Below, piece after piece: positions 4,350 through 29,233 of a DNA stretch of 64,000 nt (position 1 is its first letter; every line of letters starts with the position of its first letter). The translations under genes and the position numbers were made by a program. A model generated the notes under the pieces. It was given only the letters and a program-made list of their open reading frames with translations. It made no database searches and was not told the origin of the DNA. The stretch comes from a virus. Location: positions 1 to 64,000 of the IMG/VR virus record IMGVR_UViG_3300027733_000049; one strand, given 5' to 3'.

Positions 4350-4769
4350 ATGTCGATTATTCAGACCCAGACTACCAGTTTTAAGGCAGAGCTTTATCAA
4401 GGTATACACGACTTAACGACTGACGTTATCAAGATTGCTCTGTACACAGCCAGCGCGGATTTAAATGAAACAACAACTGCGTACAGCGCGACCAATGAAG
4501 TAGCTAATACAGGTACTTATTCTGCTGGCGGGGCGACACTAACACCCATCACGGTATCATCTTCAGGGTACACGGCCTATGTGGGCTTCCCGAACATCTC
4601 TTGGACAGGCGCAATTACCGCAAGATGTGCGTTGATTTATAACTCTAGCCAAGGTAACAAATCTGTGGCTGTATTAGACTTTGGGTCTGACAAAACATCT
4701 ACCGTTACATTTACAATCACCATGCCAGCCAACACCGCTACGGCGGCTCTTATTAGGAGTTCAAATTGA
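4350..4769 (+). CDS. minor virion protein, paralogue of 4961
   Basis: 139 residues, beta-rich. Shares with the 4961 gene the plan TTSFK.(E/D)L(Y/F)..(I/V)H, then KIALYT/KAALYI, TTAYSATNEV, an (I/L)YNS(S/T)Q.NK(S/A)VAV strand and a final T.(T/S)..LR/IR. The pair are tandem duplicates separated by a 61-residue gene. Probably a small head or tail surface protein; no catalytic motif. Confidence 0.7.
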   Translation: MSIIQTQTTSFKAELYQGIHDLTTDVIKIALYTASADLNETTTAYSATNEVANTGTYSAGGATLTPITVSSSGYTAYVGFPNISWTGAITARCALIYNSSQGNKSVAVLDFGSDKTSTVTFTITMPANTATAALIRSSN

Positions 4770-17764: not shown

Positions 17765-20221
17765 ATGAGCCTACAACACGCTGCCCATCATTTAGCGTCA
17801 CAAGGTCGTGGACCTGACGATACGCTCGTCCATATGTCCCACCGTGAAGTGCGGAGCCTACAAGATATTGCACGGGCAAATGGCGGTTCGTTGACCATTA
17901 ATCCTGAGACTGGCCTTGTTGAAGCTGGGTTCTTGACTAACCTTTTGCCTATGATTGCAGGGGCAGCTTTGACGGCAACTGGGGTTGGTGCGCCTTTAGC
18001 GGCTTTGATGGTGGGCGGGTTCCAAACTGCTCGTACTGGCAGTTTAGAAAAAGGTCTCATGGCGGGACTTGGGGCTTATGGTGGCGCTGGGTTAGCGGGT
18101 GGACTGTCTGCTTCCGCTGGGGCGGCAGAAGCTGCTAATCCTGCTGCAAACCTTGCAGGTAAAGCTGTTCCTCCAATTGAACAAATTAACCCCTCTAATG
18201 CGTTATCAGTAACTGATAAACTTAAATATGGTATTCAGGGTCTTGGCACGGAAACAGGACGCAATGCCGCTCTTAATGCAATGGGTGGTGGGTTTGGAGC
18301 CGCTAAAACCGCAGGTATGGCGTTAGCCCCCGTACTTACAGACACTGGCGATCAAAAAGCCCCGCCTTCAGACAACGAGCAGTACAACTTTGAGTACGAT
18401 CCCGGACGTGTGGAAAACCCTGATGAAGGGTATACAGGCGCATTTACTGGCGAACGTACGCACTTTAAACCAAGCTATACACGACTACCTAATACCAGAG
18501 TGACTGGGATGCGTGATGGCGGTCCAGCTTATTCTGACGACAGTGGCGTTTCATTTTATGACGACGATGAAAATGTAAAAAGATATGCAGGTGAGACTGG
18601 TAGCGTAGTTAAAGACGACAAAGATAAAGCAGTCGGTATACAAGGGGCCGCTGCCGCCAAAAACTACGTACCGTTTGAATATCCAGCAACAGCAGCGCAA
18701 CCTGCCGGAAGCGTCCAACCTGTTGCAGCAAATCCGTTTTACACAATGACGGGCCAATCTGCTGATGCGTACAGATACTTGATGGGTTTAGGACCGCAAA
18801 CAAAAGGCCCAACTGTAGTTAAACCGCCTGTTATTACAGACGCTCCCGTGACTACTGAAAAACCCGTAGTCACTACAAGACCAGTTGTTACATTAGGTCC
18901 AGTAATTACTACTCCGTTTGAGACGTTTACGGAAGAAGAAACGACCGGTGAGTTGACTACCTTTGAAGACGATACAACCGAGGAAGAAACAACCGAGGAA
19001 GAAGAAACGACCGGTGAGTTGACTACCTTTGAAGACGATACAACCGAGGAAGAAGAAACGACCACTGAAGAAGAATACACAACCAGTGAGTTGACTACCT
19101 TTGAAGATGATACAACCGAAGAAGAAACGACCACTGAAGAAGAATACACAACCGAAGAAACTACGCTTTCTATTTATAGAGAACCAACTGTCACTATTGG
19201 TGACCCCAATATAACAATAGAGGACTTTACGTTTCCAGACTTTACGGTAGAACAAGTTACCGTAGACAAAACTGACAAATCTTTTTGGGATGATCCTAAT
19301 TTGGTAGACGTTGGTCCTTCAAGAGGCTTAATTAAAAATCAAGAAGAATTAGATGAATCATTTGACAAATATTTAGCAACTAATACAGATAGTCTTTTTG
19401 GAGGTTGTCCTGCGCCTTGGATCAACATTTTGATGGCGGACGGGGGCCTTGTAAAAGCTGGCGACATTAAACCCGGTATGCAAGTCTATACACGGCATGA
19501 AACCACCAATGAGTGGGGCGTCTACCCTGTGACTGCTATGGAGATGGGTGAAGACAATCGCTGGGAAGTGGTGTTAGAAGACGGACGTATTTTTGTTGGT
19601 ACGTTCAACCACCGCGTGCATACTGATGATAACTGGACTGAGATTCGTAATCTAAAAGCAGGTGACAAACTTGTTCAGCCAGAAGGCTTTGGAATTGTTA
19701 AATCTAACAAAGAATTAGACCACGGCCCAGTTGTCAAAATTACTGTTGCTGATGCGCATACATATATTTCTGAAGGCTTCCTGTCACACAATGTAAAAAT
19801 TATGGATGGTTATGATTTAGACGGGAGTTTTGATTTCCGTGGCGGTTCTGGCGGGGGCGGTAAGTACTATGACGATTTTAGTAGCCAAGCCATGGCTGCT
19901 GGTGGTATGACGTCCCCAATGATTCGTGGTCTAAGTGATCTTGGTGGCTACTCCGATGGTGGTCGTCTGTTACGTGGCCCCGGCGATGGTGTATCTGACA
20001 GCATCCCTGCAACAATTGGTGGCAAACAACCTGCACGCCTAGCTGATGGTGAGTTTGTAATTCCGGCACGGATTGTGTCTGAATTGGGTAACGGCTCAAC
20101 CGAAGCTGGCGCACGTAAACTGTACGCCATGATGGAGCGTATCCAAGCTGCCCGTGGCAAAACAGTTGGTAAAAACCGTGTGGCTGCAAATTCGCGTGCT
20201 GATAGGCATCTGCCCGTATGA
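17765..20221 (+). CDS. large virion-type protein with Glu/Thr repeats and Hint domain
   Basis: 818 residues. In order: helical and Gly/Ala-rich hydrophobic N-terminus (NLLPMIAGAALTATGVGAPL, about 55-75, then glycine-rich helices); a disordered acidic region; Pro/Val/Thr stretch (350-385); Glu/Thr repeats at about 389-465; a Hint domain from Cys548 to Asn676; and a Gly-rich C-terminus containing LADGEFVIPARIVSELGNGS, a motif frequent in phage internal virion proteins. The Hint domain could cut or splice the protein; see separate entry. Confidence 0.7.
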   Translation: MSLQHAAHHLASQGRGPDDTLVHMSHREVRSLQDIARANGGSLTINPETGLVEAGFLTNLLPMIAGAALTATGVGAPLAALMVGGFQTARTGSLEKGLMAGLGAYGGAGLAGGLSASAGAAEAANPAANLAGKAVPPIEQINPSNALSVTDKLKYGIQGLGTETGRNAALNAMGGGFGAAKTAGMALAPVLTDTGDQKAPPSDNEQYNFEYDPGRVENPDEGYTGAFTGERTHFKPSYTRLPNTRVTGMRDGGPAYSDDSGVSFYDDDENVKRYAGETGSVVKDDKDKAVGIQGAAAAKNYVPFEYPATAAQPAGSVQPVAANPFYTMTGQSADAYRYLMGLGPQTKGPTVVKPPVITDAPVTTEKPVVTTRPVVTLGPVITTPFETFTEEETTGELTTFEDDTTEEETTEEEETTGELTTFEDDTTEEEETTTEEEYTTSELTTFEDDTTEEETTTEEEYTTEETTLSIYREPTVTIGDPNITIEDFTFPDFTVEQVTVDKTDKSFWDDPNLVDVGPSRGLIKNQEELDESFDKYLATNTDSLFGGCPAPWINILMADGGLVKAGDIKPGMQVYTRHETTNEWGVYPVTAMEMGEDNRWEVVLEDGRIFVGTFNHRVHTDDNWTEIRNLKAGDKLVQPEGFGIVKSNKELDHGPVVKITVADAHTYISEGFLSHNVKIMDGYDLDGSFDFRGGSGGGGKYYDDFSSQAMAAGGMTSPMIRGLSDLGGYSDGGRLLRGPGDGVSDSIPATIGGKQPARLADGEFVIPARIVSELGNGSTEAGARKLYAMMERIQAARGKTVGKNRVAANSRADRHLPV
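18931..19160 (+). repeat. coding Glu/Thr repeat block
   Basis: Three imperfect copies of a unit encoding TGELTTFEDDTTEEE or TSELTTFEDDTTEEE, with GAAGAAGAAACGACC-type DNA between them, giving an acidic, disordered linker of about 75 residues. Purine-rich simple DNA, prone to length change. Confidence 0.75.
19406..19792 (+). other. Hint (intein-like) domain, 129 residues
   Basis: Residues 548-676 of the protein at 17765. Seen directly: Cys548 after GG (block A, CPAPWINILMADGG), TFNH at 613-616 (block B TxxH), LKAGDKL, then DAHTYISEGFLSHN with His675-Asn676 (blocks F and G). The residue after Asn is Val, not Cys/Ser/Thr, so it resembles a bacterial intein-like or Hint autoprocessing module and not a canonical splicing intein. 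No homing endonuclease insert. Confidence 0.75.
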
Positions 20222-22747: not shown

Positions 22748-25700
22748 ATGATTATCAATCTGCCCAAACTTGGGGACGTTGAGTTTCCAGATAATGTCAC
22801 GCCCGAACAGTTAAATGGGTTGTTGGGCAAATTGTCTGAAAAATATGATTTCCGTTTACCAAAGCCAGAAGCAAGTTTAGGTACGATTGCAAAGCGTGGT
22901 GTGATGCGTTCTTTGGGAGAAACAGGTATCGCGTTTGGCGATCTGGCTCCCGCAATGCTCAACGAGTTTGTTGGTGGTGATAAAGAATATACGCAGCGCC
23001 AGATGGGTGAAGCGCAAGCTTCCCGTGAAGAACTTCAACGTAAGTACCCCACACGGTTTAAATCTTACAAAAACATTGACAGCCCATTTGAAGCAATTGA
23101 ATACGGTGCTGAAACTTTAGGCGAGCTAATCCCCACTGCCGCTACTACCATGATCCCCGGTGCAGGTGCAGGTGTTGTAGGTGGCAGAATGGCGGCAGGC
23201 AATGTAATGCGTTCTGCCTTGCAAGCTGGCCCACTATCCCGTGCGGGTATGGCTACGGCACAAACTGCCGCCAAAGAAGCCGGTCAAGTTGCAGGTCGCC
23301 GTGCTATGTATGCAGGCAACTACATGGGTTCATTTGCGCAAAACGCCCCTGAAGTCTTTGAAGGTATTTACCAAGAAACTGGCAAGTTTGAACCGGGGAT
23401 TGCCGCCCTTGCAGGTGGTATTAGTTCTGTGTTGGACTCTATTGTCCCAACTAAAGTCATGGATCAACTTGGCACATATGGCAAATTAAAGCTCGTTGAG
23501 AAGTTGGCTAAAGAATCGGGTGCGGCCCCCAATGTGTGGAAGCGTATTGGCATCGATGCCGCTAAGACTGCGGCTACGGAAGGCTTAACTGAGTCTGCAC
23601 AAGAATCAATTGGTGCATATGCAGAACAAGTCGCAGGCAGTGCCAAGGGCATACTAGATCCCGAGAACATCCAACGCTACAAAGAATCATTTGTTAAAGG
23701 TGCTATTGGTGGTTCAGCTTTTGCCGTGCCTCAAGCTGTGTCTCAGTACCGCACAATTAAACGTGATCAGTTTGCAACTAAAGAAGCACAAGATGCTTTG
23801 GCACAGCAAGATCAACTTGCAAAACAGCAGGCTCAACAGCCAACAGCTATGCAACAACAAGTGATGAAAGCCGCGCAGCCCCAGCCCGGTGTTCCTCGCA
23901 CACAGGAAGAACTTGAGGAAGCTTTTAGATACACGCAAGAAGAGTTGGGCATCTTACAGAAGCGTATGGATGAGTCACGTCCCGGCTCACCAGCTTATGC
24001 AGAATTGGATGCCGCAATCAAAGCTAAACAAGTTGAAGCAGATAAGATCAGCCAAGAGAAAGCCAAAACCAGTGTGTTTGCTGCCGCCAAACCAAATGAA
24101 CAAGGTTTGTATCCCGCACAACAACCGGTTGATGTCAACACAGTTAAGTCATTAGGTGTTAACCCTACATCTAAAGCTGCTCAATCATTAATGGGGCTTG
24201 ACTTAAACACACCTGAAGGTGTGACTACGTTTGTACAAACACTTGAAGATCCGGGCTACAAGGGTAGTATTAATGAAGCCGCATACAACAGCCTCGTATC
24301 TACATTTGACCCCGCCACAGTTGCGACGGCTAGAGAAAGCCTCAAAGGAGCGCCCAATGTTGCAAGACCTAACGCCCCAACAGGTGGAACAAGCACTAAG
24401 GTGGCTAGCCAGCCCAGTGGTGGACAGCCCACCGCAGGAGCTACTACATCTAAACGAGATGGAATGGTTTCTACTGGACAGAATGTTGACAACACTGTTG
24501 GTGGAGAAGGACAGCCAACCACTCCAGTAGCCACATTCCAGACATCTAAGGGCAGTACCTACATTGTTGGTACAGATGGTAAAACAAGTCGTACCAAACT
24601 CTCCCCCGGAAAAGGACAAGGAGAGACATACGAGCCACACACTGCCTTGTTTGTAAACCCCGGTGACCATACTGAAATCTTAAGTGACATGCAAGGTGGT
24701 ATGGGCGACCACTCTGTCCGTTTGGGTTATATGGCAAACGGCAAGTTTGTTCAAATACAGAGCATTTCTGAAATACCTGATGGTGCAGAACCTAAAGTTG
24801 GAGTGTTTAATAAGAAGACTGGCGCAACTGTTGGGATGTACGGTGCCGCAACTGCACCTGCAATGGGGTTGCATCCAGTTGAAAAGTTGTACAAAACTGA
24901 TGGTACTGCATCGACCCACGTTGGCAATTCAATTACTAAGATTGATAAAGCAGTTGCAGAGGAAAGCCAAGAGCTAGACCCGCTTTTTGAATATGCGGTG
25001 TCTTTGATCCAAACAGGTGTTGAACCTACGCCTAGCGCCCTTGCAAAAGAACTTGATATTGATCAAGAACGTGCTTTGGAAATCTTGGCGCAGATGGATT
25101 CTGAAGGTATGTTTGACGAGATTGCTAAACAAAATGCAATTGAGGTGGGCAAACGTAAACCACCACCCAAACAACCACCTGTAGGTACAGTTAAGACAAT
25201 TAACATCCCGCAAGAAGAAGTGGTGACTGAAGTTGATAAAACCAACGCTTCTGATAAAGAAAAAGTCAAAGCGCTTGCTGATTCAAAGAGTAAAACTCCC
25301 AAGGAAAAAGACGCCCGTGCATATTTTGGGCGGTTAGAACTTGGTTTAGCGCTTCGCACTATTGCCAATGACTTGGTACTTCAGCCTACGAGATACCGCA
25401 ACTCATTGATGACGAGCCTTAAAGACAGCCCCGAAGGTGCGGAACCACTTTTTAAAGATGAAGCAGAAGCTAAACTGCATCGTGGTCAGGGTGGTGTACA
25501 TACCCGTAACGCATCTGAGTGGGTGCGTGAAAACCTGTCGCCTAAGAATGTTGCCTACATGGATAAGTGGGTTGCGCAATATACAAAAGAAGACCAACGT
25601 GCACAACGGTTTTCAAAGAAGTTTGAAAAACAACAAGAACAAAGAGCCAACGTAGAAACGCAGGTTAAAGAAGAATCTCAAGCCGCTAAAAAGCAAGGCG

Positions 25701-28700
25701 AGTATGTGCCTACCGCAGAAGAAGCCGCAGAAGCCGCCGCCACAGAGACTTTGGTAGAAAAGGGCAAGAAGAACCTACAAACTCTTGCATACGAGTTAGA
25801 GAATGACTTGTATGGCAGTGACGAAGATTTGCTTGCCTCCAAAGATATTGCCGCGCTGTTCAACCAAGCGCACCCCGTTGTGCTTGACCTACTTGCTCGC
25901 GGTCAACTGACCCGTGCCCTGCAATCGCTGTCGGATACTGCCTCATCAGAGTTTGTTCGTAGAACTGCGGAAACTTTGTCCAAGGTTACTGGCACTACCA
26001 AACTTGTGTATGGCGCAAAGGAGTCTAGGTTTGACCCTGCGACTAACACCGTTTATCTACGTGATAGTGCGACCGACTACGAAATTTTGCATGAGATGTC
26101 CCATGCCGGTTTGTCCCACATAATCTCCAACCCATCGCATCCAGTTACAAAACAACTGGGTCAAATCTTTGCGCAAATCAAAGGTGATATTGATGGTGCA
26201 TATGGTGCAAAGAACTTACAAGAATTTGTAGCAGAAGCTTGGAGTAACGAAGACTTCAGGGGCCACTTAAAAGAAAAGTACGCTCCCGGCAACAAGTTGT
26301 CTGTTTGGGACAAGATCATGAACGTCCTACGTCGCATGATTGGTTACCCTCCCAAGACACAGGAGTCTGTGCTTGATAGCGTTGATCGCATGTTGAACCA
26401 AATTGCCAGTGTTGCGCCCGACATGCGTAAGGGAGATTCTCTGTATGCACAAGCTATGCAACACCCCAACTTGGCTCAAAAAGTTATGGGGAAAGTGGAC
26501 GACGTAATCCAGCAGCAGCAGGTTATGACTCCAGAGCGTGCCGCTGAATGGGTGGGTAAAGCTGAAAACATGGGCATCAGTTTCCGTTCTGCCATGCAAA
26601 GGTTCTTAAACCTCTCAGCGCTAGGGCAAGTGGGTAGTAACTACGTTGGACGTGATGCAATTACGTTTTCCGATAAGGTCAACGAGATGGCGGGTTACTA
26701 CGAAAACTTGATGAACAAACTCAAGCCTCTGGTTGACCGTGAAGAAGCATTTGCTAAGACTGACCGTTATCAATTTTGGTCTACCCTTGTGAACGACTCT
26801 ACTGTGGAGGATGTAAATCCTACCGCACCACGCAAAAACTATGAAGGTTCTCCAGAGAAGCTGGCCGCATGGGATCAGTTGAACAGACGCTACAACACGT
26901 TGACCGATACAGAAAAGAAACTGTACAACGATCACTTCAGTGCGTTCAAGGAAATGTTCAAAGAACTGAAAGCTTCTATTAGAGGCAGTCTGAACCAGAC
27001 TTTCCGCAACGAAGATGGATCACCTGATGATGCCCGTATATCGTCTGCCTATGAAAAGATCATGGACAAGATTACAAAGATGGGCATCGATCACTACTCA
27101 CCTTTGTATCGTCATGGCTCGTTTTGGCTAGTCTACACAGACAAGAATACCAATGAGTCTGTATCAAAACTGTTTGAAAGCCAAGCAGAACGAAGACTTG
27201 AACGTAATAAGTTGGAAACCGAGGGGCATACTGGCTTTGATGAGCCTGTGCGTATGGATCAGATGAAATCCAAATCTGTTCCACGTGGAACAGTTGCCGC
27301 AGATATTGTGAAGATCATGAAAGACGGTAACGCGGATGAGAAGGCTATCGATGCCTTCTATCAACTTATTGTCAGTGCCCTGCCAGAGACCAGCGTGCTC
27401 AAGTCGTTTCAAAAACGTAAGAACACCCCCGGCTACATAGATGATGCGGCACTGGCGTTTACCAACGTCACAAGCAACATGGCACGTCAGTTGTCCCGCA
27501 TGAAGTACAACGAAGAACTCAAAGGCTTGGTTGATAAGATGCGTACGACTGTGGGTCAAAGTCGTGGCAAGGATGCCTTGCGTGGTGCTGAAGTTGTAAA
27601 AGAACTAGAAGCACGTCGTGAGTTTGCGATGAACCCCACCCTGTCTGACATATCACGCTATGCAAGTGGGGGGGCTTTTTACTTTAACTTGGCAGGTAAC
27701 ATTTCATCTGCTGTGGTCAACTTAGTACAAACCCCAATGGCGACTTACCCTCAACTTGGTGGTGAGTATGGCTACTTAGAGGCAGGTAGGGCATTGATTG
27801 CGGCTACCAAATTGTATGGATCATCAGGGTTATCCCGTATAGTCACTGACATAAATGGTCAGCAGTCCACAGAAAAAGCCATGTTGTCTGTTGAAAACCT
27901 TGTCAATGCAGGTAAAGCCCCGCAGTACAAAGAACTTGTAAAACGTCTGAATGAATTGGGCTTCTTACAAAATACAACAATGCGTGAGGCGTTGGAAGCA
28001 AGCAACCGTGGCGAAATCAACAAGGGTAAGTCTTCGGATCTAATGAACGATGTTACCCAAAAGGCTACGTTCCTGTTCCACCATGCCGAGCGTGCCAACC
28101 GTGAAGTCTCTGCAATCGCTACGTACGACTTAGAAATGCAGAAGCTGAAAAACAACAAGCAGATGAACGATGAGCAAAAGCAGGCTCAAGCAATTGAAAA
28201 AGCAGTGCGTATGTTGGAATTCACGCACGGTGCAAGTCACACAGAATCTGCCCCCAGTATTGGTCACTCCGACATTGGTAAGATTTTGACAGTGTTCAAG
28301 CGTTTTGGTTTCACCATGTATTACATGTTGTTTGACACAATCCGCAGATCACTTCCAATAGCAGGTGCTACTGGTAAAGAACTTGAGGGTATTCAAGCGG
28401 CTCGTCGCCAACTGATTGGCACATACGGCATGGCAGGGATCTTTGCAGGTGCTAAAGGTTTGCCCTTGTATTGGGTTGCTGAGTTGGCATACAACGCATT
28501 GAACGATGACGACGAAGATGACTTTGATGCTGTCATGCGTAAATATCTTGGTGAGCTTGCGTTTAAAGGACCTGTTAATTACTTTACTAACTTAGGCATT
28601 GCAGATCGCGTGGGTTGGACTGACCTAATCTACCGTGAAAACAAAGGTGATAAAGCCGATGCAAGTGCCTTGAGCCAATTTGTAGAGAGCGTGTTGGGTG

Positions 28701-29233
28701 CGCCATACTCTGTGGTTAATAGCTTGTATCGTGCCAAACAACTAGCATCTGAAGGGCATACAGAGCGTGCAGTTGAAGCGGCACTGCCCATTGGTCTGCG
28801 TAACATCCTCAAAGGTGGACGCTATGCCGTTGAAGGTGCAAATACATTACGTGGTGACCCAGTGATGGGTGAGATCAACGGATACAACGCCGCCATGCAA
28901 GTTATGGGATTTGCCCCTGCTGACTTGATGGCACAGTACGAAGAAAACGCCTACGCCAAGAAAAAGGGCGACACCATTAGCGGTATGGAGAAGAAGTACC
29001 TCAAACAGTATTACGTTGCTGACCGCATGGGAGACTATGAACGTGCTGATGAGTTGCGTCAGAAGTTGTATGACTTAGGTGACAAGTACCCTGAGTTGAA
29101 AATTACTGAATCCACGATTACAAAGTCTGTTAAAAATCGGGATCGCATCTCAGAGGATATGTATCACGGGGTGCAGTTGAATAAGAAGCTACGCCCAATT
29201 ATTGAACGTGATATTGCAGAACTGCGTGACTGA
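22748..29233 (+). CDS. giant internal virion protein with metallopeptidase motif
   Basis: 2161 residues, last gene of the rightward block. N-terminal ~270 residues are Gly/Ala-rich and amphipathic (TAATTMIPGAGAGVVGG, GSFAQNAPEVFEGIYQETG), suited to membrane interaction. About residues 330-440 are coiled and Gln-rich. A zinc-metallopeptidase-like motif HEMSH lies at 1115-1119 after TVYLRDSATDYEIL. The remainder is helical with a hydrophobic segment near 1895-1925. Size and position fit the T7 gp16-type ejection protein; no transglycosylase motif identified. Confidence 0.7.
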   Translation: MIINLPKLGDVEFPDNVTPEQLNGLLGKLSEKYDFRLPKPEASLGTIAKRGVMRSLGETGIAFGDLAPAMLNEFVGGDKEYTQRQMGEAQASREELQRKYPTRFKSYKNIDSPFEAIEYGAETLGELIPTAATTMIPGAGAGVVGGRMAAGNVMRSALQAGPLSRAGMATAQTAAKEAGQVAGRRAMYAGNYMGSFAQNAPEVFEGIYQETGKFEPGIAALAGGISSVLDSIVPTKVMDQLGTYGKLKLVEKLAKESGAAPNVWKRIGIDAAKTAATEGLTESAQESIGAYAEQVAGSAKGILDPENIQRYKESFVKGAIGGSAFAVPQAVSQYRTIKRDQFATKEAQDALAQQDQLAKQQAQQPTAMQQQVMKAAQPQPGVPRTQEELEEAFRYTQEELGILQKRMDESRPGSPAYAELDAAIKAKQVEADKISQEKAKTSVFAAAKPNEQGLYPAQQPVDVNTVKSLGVNPTSKAAQSLMGLDLNTPEGVTTFVQTLEDPGYKGSINEAAYNSLVSTFDPATVATARESLKGAPNVARPNAPTGGTSTKVASQPSGGQPTAGATTSKRDGMVSTGQNVDNTVGGEGQPTTPVATFQTSKGSTYIVGTDGKTSRTKLSPGKGQGETYEPHTALFVNPGDHTEILSDMQGGMGDHSVRLGYMANGKFVQIQSISEIPDGAEPKVGVFNKKTGATVGMYGAATAPAMGLHPVEKLYKTDGTASTHVGNSITKIDKAVAEESQELDPLFEYAVSLIQTGVEPTPSALAKELDIDQERALEILAQMDSEGMFDEIAKQNAIEVGKRKPPPKQPPVGTVKTINIPQEEVVTEVDKTNASDKEKVKALADSKSKTPKEKDARAYFGRLELGLALRTIANDLVLQPTRYRNSLMTSLKDSPEGAEPLFKDEAEAKLHRGQGGVHTRNASEWVRENLSPKNVAYMDKWVAQYTKEDQRAQRFSKKFEKQQEQRANVETQVKEESQAAKKQGEYVPTAEEAAEAAATETLVEKGKKNLQTLAYELENDLYGSDEDLLASKDIAALFNQAHPVVLDLLARGQLTRALQSLSDTASSEFVRRTAETLSKVTGTTKLVYGAKESRFDPATNTVYLRDSATDYEILHEMSHAGLSHIISNPSHPVTKQLGQIFAQIKGDIDGAYGAKNLQEFVAEAWSNEDFRGHLKEKYAPGNKLSVWDKIMNVLRRMIGYPPKTQESVLDSVDRMLNQIASVAPDMRKGDSLYAQAMQHPNLAQKVMGKVDDVIQQQQVMTPERAAEWVGKAENMGISFRSAMQRFLNLSALGQVGSNYVGRDAITFSDKVNEMAGYYENLMNKLKPLVDREEAFAKTDRYQFWSTLVNDSTVEDVNPTAPRKNYEGSPEKLAAWDQLNRRYNTLTDTEKKLYNDHFSAFKEMFKELKASIRGSLNQTFRNEDGSPDDARISSAYEKIMDKITKMGIDHYSPLYRHGSFWLVYTDKNTNESVSKLFESQAERRLERNKLETEGHTGFDEPVRMDQMKSKSVPRGTVAADIVKIMKDGNADEKAIDAFYQLIVSALPETSVLKSFQKRKNTPGYIDDAALAFTNVTSNMARQLSRMKYNEELKGLVDKMRTTVGQSRGKDALRGAEVVKELEARREFAMNPTLSDISRYASGGAFYFNLAGNISSAVVNLVQTPMATYPQLGGEYGYLEAGRALIAATKLYGSSGLSRIVTDINGQQSTEKAMLSVENLVNAGKAPQYKELVKRLNELGFLQNTTMREALEASNRGEINKGKSSDLMNDVTQKATFLFHHAERANREVSAIATYDLEMQKLKNNKQMNDEQKQAQAIEKAVRMLEFTHGASHTESAPSIGHSDIGKILTVFKRFGFTMYYMLFDTIRRSLPIAGATGKELEGIQAARRQLIGTYGMAGIFAGAKGLPLYWVAELAYNALNDDDEDDFDAVMRKYLGELAFKGPVNYFTNLGIADRVGWTDLIYRENKGDKADASALSQFVESVLGAPYSVVNSLYRAKQLASEGHTERAVEAALPIGLRNILKGGRYAVEGANTLRGDPVMGEINGYNAAMQVMGFAPADLMAQYEENAYAKKKGDTISGMEKKYLKQYYVADRMGDYERADELRQKLYDLGDKYPELKITESTITKSVKNRDRISEDMYHGVQLNKKLRPIIERDIAELRD

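What the first reader, a model, noticed from the sequence alone, without database searches (positions are those of the whole stretch)
19406..19792. Hint (intein-like) domain inside a large virion-type protein
Cys548, TxxH (613-616) and His675-Asn676 are all present at the expected spacing in a 129-residue mini-domain. The following Val is not a splicing nucleophile, so cleavage or unusual splicing of the kind reported for bacterial intein-like domains is likely. It sits between an acidic Glu/Thr repeat and a Gly-rich C-terminus, so autoprocessing could release a part during assembly or DNA ejection.
Basis: partly seen in the sequence, partly recalled or inferred. Interest (0 to 1): 0.75.

Follow-up and report, generated by a model that had tools for sequence, protein, structure and literature searches.

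The report
Phage tail self-cutting protein domain
A phage structural gene carries a real, complete, intein-like self-cutting domain that belongs to a little-noticed family sitting at the ends of phage tail proteins, and nearly every member keeps a lysine two residues past the cut site where ordinary inteins keep a cysteine, serine or threonine at the first residue.

Summary
Residues 548-676 (19406-19792) of an intact 818-codon ORF form a Hint domain: PT-HINT E 1e-9, AlphaFold2 pLDDT 93.6, Z about 21 to DnaB mini-inteins and the Tetrahymena BIL2 domain. Cys548, Thr613, His616, His675 and Asn676 are present. The next residue, Val677, is no nucleophile.

It is an insertion: 70 distinct close homologues of the host protein found lack it, and L023 shows a near-exact empty site.

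The domain belongs to a phage family found across 38 clusters (<70% identity). The host proteins are mostly tail-tip, tail-assembly or tail-fibre proteins, and the Hint is usually the C-terminus, leaving only 4-14 residues after the Asn. In a census whose DNA patterns did not use the C-terminus, position +1 is variable (I/V/L/T/M/A/F/Y/K), but +2 is Lys in 31 of 32 clusters; the 32nd has Lys at +1. Three phage inteins used as controls have T/S at +1 and no Lys.

Best reading: a type-A BIL-like autoprocessing module that cuts at Gly547-Cys548 and Asn676-Val677. Unproven but testable: Lys678 captures the thioester as an isopeptide. New variant of a known kind.

The parts
17765..20221 (+). Host ORF, 818 aa, putative virion protein carrying the Hint domain
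   Evidence: homologues
17765..18118 (+). Conserved N-terminal region (residues 1-118) shared with Hint-less homologues
18932..19154 (+). Tandem repeat (66 bp unit, about 3.2 copies) encoding the acidic Glu/Thr-rich linker
   Evidence: the linker differs in content between homologues
19400..19405 (+). Gly546-Gly547 immediately before the scissile bond; end of the matching stretch in the empty-site homologue L023 (SSLFGG)
19406..19792 (+). Hint domain, residues 548-676
19406..19408 (+). Cys548, block A nucleophile (38/38 clusters)
19601..19612 (+). Block B TxxH: Thr613 (T or S in 38/38) and His616 (38/38)
19757..19759 (+). His665, block F (H 24, R 7, G 6, M 1 of 38)
19787..19792 (+). His675-Asn676, block G terminal His-Asn
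19793..19798 (+). Val677 (+1, variable) and Lys678 (+2, Lys in 37/38 clusters)
19793..20218 (+). C-terminal part, residues 677-818, which cleavage after Asn676 would release
19991..20176 (+). Conserved C-terminal domain (residues 743-804) present in most Hint-less homologues; a separate downstream gene in L038, L041, L064, L066

Best explanation
A complete, selected Hint autoprocessing domain has been inserted in the Gly-containing linker between the N-terminal and C-terminal parts of a phage structural protein. After folding, Cys548 attacks the Gly547-Cys548 bond (N-S acyl shift, helped by Thr613 and His616) to give a thioester, and Asn676, helped by His675, cyclises and breaks the Asn676-Val677 bond. 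With no Cys, Ser or Thr at +1, the normal intein branched intermediate cannot form, so the main products should be separate pieces (N part 1-547, Hint, C part 677-818), with some joining of the two parts by amine attack on the thioester, as in type A BIL domains. The nearly invariant Lys at +2 most probably takes part in resolving the thioester or assisting the C-terminal step. Shown here: fold, complete catalytic residues, conservation, insertion, purifying selection, tail-protein context of the family. Inferred: that the reactions occur, their order, the products, and any role in assembly or infection.
For: Fold: AlphaFold2 mean pLDDT 93.6 from a 27-row alignment; Z 21.6 to DnaB mini-intein 1mi8, 21.3 to BIL2 6y75, 19.6 to a Clostridium BIL domain 2lwy, 18.4 to Hedgehog 1at0. 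Catalytic residues: Cys 38/38, T/S 38/38, His 38/38, terminal His-Asn in all full-length members (no sequence was dropped for lacking HN). Selection: window versus L002 Hint dN 0.126 while synonymous sites are saturated (pS 0.80). Insertion: L023 reads SSLFGG then a Gly-rich stretch and GGGGKYFDD where the window has SLFGG-Hint-GGSGGGGKYYDD. Cleavage rather than splicing is hinted at by four homologues in which the C-terminal domain is a separate adjacent gene, and by most family members having only 4-14 residues after Asn, so that there is little to splice on. Type A BILs with His-Asn and no +1 nucleophile form the N-terminal thioester, cleave and splice weakly (PMC4031507).
Against: No biochemical data. 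Branched or hydrophobic +1 residues such as Val are expected to slow Asn cyclisation in inteins (own knowledge). Block F Asp/His is not conserved throughout the family, so step rates may differ. The host protein could not be modelled (pLDDT 51), so what would be released, and its use, is unknown. Hint-less homologues are the rule, so processing is not essential to this protein family.
Confidence: 0.66

Rival explanations
1. Isopeptide (lysine-resolved) processing: the side-chain amine of Lys678 attacks the Cys548 thioester, so the N part becomes joined through an isopeptide bond to Lys at +2, and Asn cyclisation then frees the Hint. In C-terminal members this would leave a tail protein ending in Gly linked to a short lysine peptide; acting between subunits it would cross-link tail proteins.
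For: Lys at +2 in 31/32 clusters from scans whose patterns did not use the C-terminus, Lys at +1 in the remaining one, while +1 and +3 onward vary and the tail is often only 4-6 residues. Three phage inteins used as controls have HN-T, HN-S, HN-S and no Lys at +2. The structurally close BIL2 domain of Tetrahymena is reported to form an isopeptide bond to a lysine of the C-flanking ubiquitin-like domain (PMC8616854; fold match).
Against: No chemistry shown; Lys amines are normally protonated and weak nucleophiles for this step. Lys could instead be structural or aid Asn cyclisation.
Confidence: 0.2
2. A true intein that excises itself and rejoins the two parts efficiently, restoring the Hint-less protein.
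For: Clean insertion with a near-exact empty site; complete block A, B and G residues; intein profile matches.
Against: No Cys/Ser/Thr at +1 in the window; +1 varies in the family. It lies in a variable low-complexity linker, not a conserved active site; no homing endonuclease segment in 129 residues. Most relatives have no C-terminal part worth rejoining. Removal at Asn676 would leave about 16 extra residues compared with L023.
Confidence: 0.1
3. A degenerate Hint kept as an inert folded spacer or binding domain.
For: Hint-less homologues are common; +1 nucleophile absent.
Against: Every catalytic residue is conserved across 38 clusters down to about 30% identity, together with strong purifying selection.
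Confidence: 0.1
4. A polymorphic-toxin pre-toxin HINT that releases a C-terminal toxin.
For: Best Pfam match is PT-HINT; such HINT domains sit just before C-terminal toxin domains (PMC3482391).
Against: The C-terminal part is a conserved domain found in nearly all complete Hint-less homologues and in a separate gene in others, and no toxin family matched. Most relatives have no domain after the Hint.
Confidence: 0.03

Closest known systems
Type A bacterial intein-like (BIL) domains (PMC4031507; structure 2lwy)
   Same: About 130-residue Hint fold, N-terminal Cys, TxxH, terminal His-Asn, no conserved +1 nucleophile, in variable proteins
   Different: Phage tail or virion proteins as hosts, usually extreme C-terminal, Gly-rich upstream linker, nearly invariant Lys at +2
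Tetrahymena BUBL1 BIL2 domain (6Y75, 6TMM; PMC8616854)
   Same: Z 21.3 over 136 residues; a lysine on the C-terminal side is the proposed acceptor in BIL2
   Different: BIL2 lysine lies in a following ubiquitin-like domain; here the lysine is two residues after the Asn; no ubiquitin-like domains here
Class 1 inteins of phages, such as Corynebacterium phage terminase
   Same: Fold, blocks A, B and G
   Different: Inteins checked here have T or S at +1 and lie in conserved enzyme genes
PT-HINT (PF07591) of polymorphic toxins
   Same: Highest Pfam match, over the cut-off
   Different: No toxin domain follows; hosts are phage structural proteins
Hedgehog Hog-Hint
   Same: Z 18.4; C-terminal position in most family members; Gly then Cys junction
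   Different: No sterol-recognition region seen; His-Asn retained

Membership tests
Hint superfamily | Hedgehog/intein fold | tested here: met
   AF2 pLDDT 93.6; Z 15-21.6 to inteins, BILs and Hedgehog
Hint superfamily | N-terminal Cys/Ser and block B T/S-xx-H | tested here: met
   Cys548, T613-xx-H616; invariant C and H, T/S in 38 clusters
Type A BIL domain | C-terminal His-Asn without conserved +1 nucleophile | tested here: met
   HN-V in window; +1 = I,V,L,T,M,A,F,Y,K across clusters
Type A BIL domain | Auto-cleavage with minor splicing | not testable with these tools
   needs expression and mass spectrometry
Type A BIL domain | Falls in one clade with described type A BILs | not tested
Intein | Cys/Ser/Thr at +1 | tested here: not met
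   Val677
Intein | Insertion in a conserved site with empty-site homologues | tested here: inconclusive
   Empty-site homologue L023 exists, but the site is a variable Gly-rich linker and the fit is not residue-exact
Intein | Efficient splicing | not testable with these tools
   needs experiment
PT-HINT of polymorphic toxins | Profile match over cut-off | tested here: met
   39.1 bits versus 27.7
PT-HINT of polymorphic toxins | Toxin domain after the HINT | tested here: not met
   no toxin family in the C part; the same domain occurs in Hint-less homologues
BIL2-type lysine conjugation | Isopeptide bond to a lysine | not testable with these tools
   only conservation of Lys at +2 is shown

The most novel reading that the evidence does not exclude
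Phage tails use a dedicated Hint family that resolves its thioester with a built-in lysine at +2, making an isopeptide instead of a normal splice, either tagging the C-terminus of tail proteins or cross-linking virion subunits: enzyme-free, ATP-free covalent protein joining in phage particles.
Probability: 0.18. Interest if true: 0.85.

Novelty: new variant of a known kind. Interest (0 to 1): 0.55.

Why it matters
Inteins are usually discussed as parasites of replication and packaging genes, and BIL domains mostly in bacterial proteins. A conserved Hint family at the ends of phage tail-tip, tail-assembly and fibre proteins would be a separate, functional use of the fold, possibly a self-contained maturation step for virions. 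The conserved lysine gives one clean mutation to test whether it is a new resolution chemistry, which could also be a protein-joining tool. Members lie in genomes of Myxococcus, Corallococcus, Pyxidicoccus and Sphingomonas strains, so tests in cultured hosts may be possible.

Tried and rejected
Scanning bacterial genomes with the two-row alignment A1 found no relatives; the broad alignment A3 had no stretch conserved enough to scan with; a tighter set, A5, worked. Modelling the host protein (L082 with 33 homologues) gave pLDDT 51, so no fold claim is made and no fold search was run. Plasmid searches gave only three weak toxin-type HINT or Neisseria hits, not fetched, and none for the Sphingomonas member. 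Literature searches found no description of this tail Hint family, but only open-access papers are held. Rejected: polymorphic toxin; homing intein; chance motif. The Lys+2 count was repeated on hits found with patterns that exclude the C-terminus, because the first wide scan used an SHN[VIM]K pattern.

Full report
WHAT IS THERE. The window is 64000 bases of a 74238-base IMG/VR virus record. The ORF at 17765-20221 encodes 818 residues without interruption. Residues 548-676 match PT-HINT (39.1 bits, cut-off 27.7), the intein C-terminal model TIGR01443 (just over its cut-off for the domain alone) and, weakly, solved mini-inteins and a BIL domain. A profile of 28 relatives matches solved BIL domains and inteins at E 1e-7 to 1e-10. 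The predicted structure is confident (pLDDT 93.6, pTM 0.86) and superposes on DnaB mini-inteins, Tetrahymena BIL2, a Clostridium BIL and Hedgehog at Z 18-21.6.

THE HOST PROTEIN. A scan with the N-terminal 178 residues gave 80 loci, from which 70 distinct homologous proteins other than the window's were read; 18 of these run off their contig. None of the 70 shows the Hint. The C-terminal domain (743-804) is in the same ORF in 48 complete forms without Hint, and in four cases (L038, L041, L064, L066) it is a separate gene starting right after the first one stops. L023 is a near neighbour without the insert: its SSLFGG runs into a Gly-rich stretch and KYFDD where the window has SLFGG, the Hint, about 16 further residues and GGSGGGGKYYDD. 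Later scans found further members of this host family that do carry the Hint: L133 and, cut by contig ends, L113 and L134. In the Hint tree the window groups with L002 (97/84), whose host protein shares with the window's only the Hint region and a 20-residue PARLxxGEFVIPA motif placed at the other end of the protein, and not with L133/L134. So the module appears to have moved between unrelated virion genes or been gained more than once (inference).

THE FAMILY. Scans of viral contigs and genomes gave 97 full-length Hint ORFs (some of them the same contig fetched twice) in 38 clusters below 70% identity. Where host proteins match PHROGs they are mostly tail proteins: tail assembly protein I type (phrog_32), tail tip J type (phrog_31, phrog_1101, phrog_5616), tail fibres and others; a few match head or unknown families. 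One matches the GTA 'megatron' model well below its cut-off. Genome hits are in Pyxidicoccus, Myxococcus and Corallococcus, which carry two Hint proteins about 2-2.5 kb apart, and in Sphingomonas. A Gly-rich linker usually precedes the Cys. In most the Hint is the C-terminus: 27 of 32 clusters have 14 or fewer residues after the Asn. The window, L009, L133, L134, L002 and L099 are among the exceptions with longer C parts.

THE LYSINE. The first wide scan used a C-terminal pattern containing SHN[VIM]K and could have created the signal. I therefore repeated it with alignments of the N-terminal half only, and kept hits from scans without that pattern. In those 32 clusters +1 is I13, V5, L4, T3, M2, A2, F1, Y1, K1; +2 is K in 31, and the one exception has K at +1; +3 and beyond vary. 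Three phage inteins read as controls have HN-TE, HN-SG and HN-SS. A residue outside the domain, after a variable +1 and often a few residues from the protein's end, kept this strictly, suggests function.

HOW IT MOST LIKELY WORKS. From established Hint chemistry (PMC4031507), Cys548 forms a thioester and Asn676 cyclises. Without a +1 nucleophile, type A BILs mostly cleave, and a little ligation follows when the freed amine attacks the thioester. That is my best reading here. The separately encoded C-terminal domain in four relatives is consistent with the two parts working as separate chains. BIL2, among the best structural matches, is reported to form an isopeptide to a lysine on its C-terminal flank (PMC8616854), which makes the Lys+2 model reasonable but unproven. 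Purifying selection is strong (dN 0.126 with saturated synonymous sites), so an inert relic is unlikely.

LIMITS. No reaction is shown. The host protein's own fold and place in the virion are unknown; structural context comes from neighbours and from family members. Membership in type A BILs was tested by motif and fold only, not by phylogeny. The literature held is open access only, and none of it described this family.

Noticed in passing
L038:4402-6603, L041:4051-6354, L064:4268-6277, L066:6001-8028: Hint-less homologues of the host protein instead end in a poly-Gly stretch followed by 'CCFIMLEARYGDGTMD...' (about 115 residues), another Gly-then-Cys module at a comparable place; no Pfam or NCBIfam match.
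   Followed up: partly
window 19991-20176; L002 around 4423-4620; L099:3141-4130: The 'GEFVIPA' motif domain travels with Hint proteins: C-terminal in the window protein, N-terminal in L002, a separate upstream gene in L099. Function unknown.
   Followed up: partly
L106, L107, L108, L109, L111, L126-L129: Myxobacterial tail clusters encode two Hint-ended proteins about 2-2.5 kb apart, the first a tail assembly protein I type.
   Followed up: partly
L009:2-7768: A Hint lies about 127 residues before the end of a protein of at least 2589 residues that looks tape-measure-like by length and its 'GGIASG..VGEQGPELADF' C-terminus (own reading; no PHROG match).
   Followed up: no
window 22748-29233: 2161-residue ORF without Pfam match containing 'EILHEMSHAGLSH', an HExxH-like metallopeptidase motif; possibly a large internal virion protein.
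   Followed up: no
window 18932-19154: 66 bp tandem repeat encoding the Glu/Thr linker; homologues have different repeats at this place (Asp/Thr in L023, Pro/Glu in L019 and L031).
   Followed up: partly
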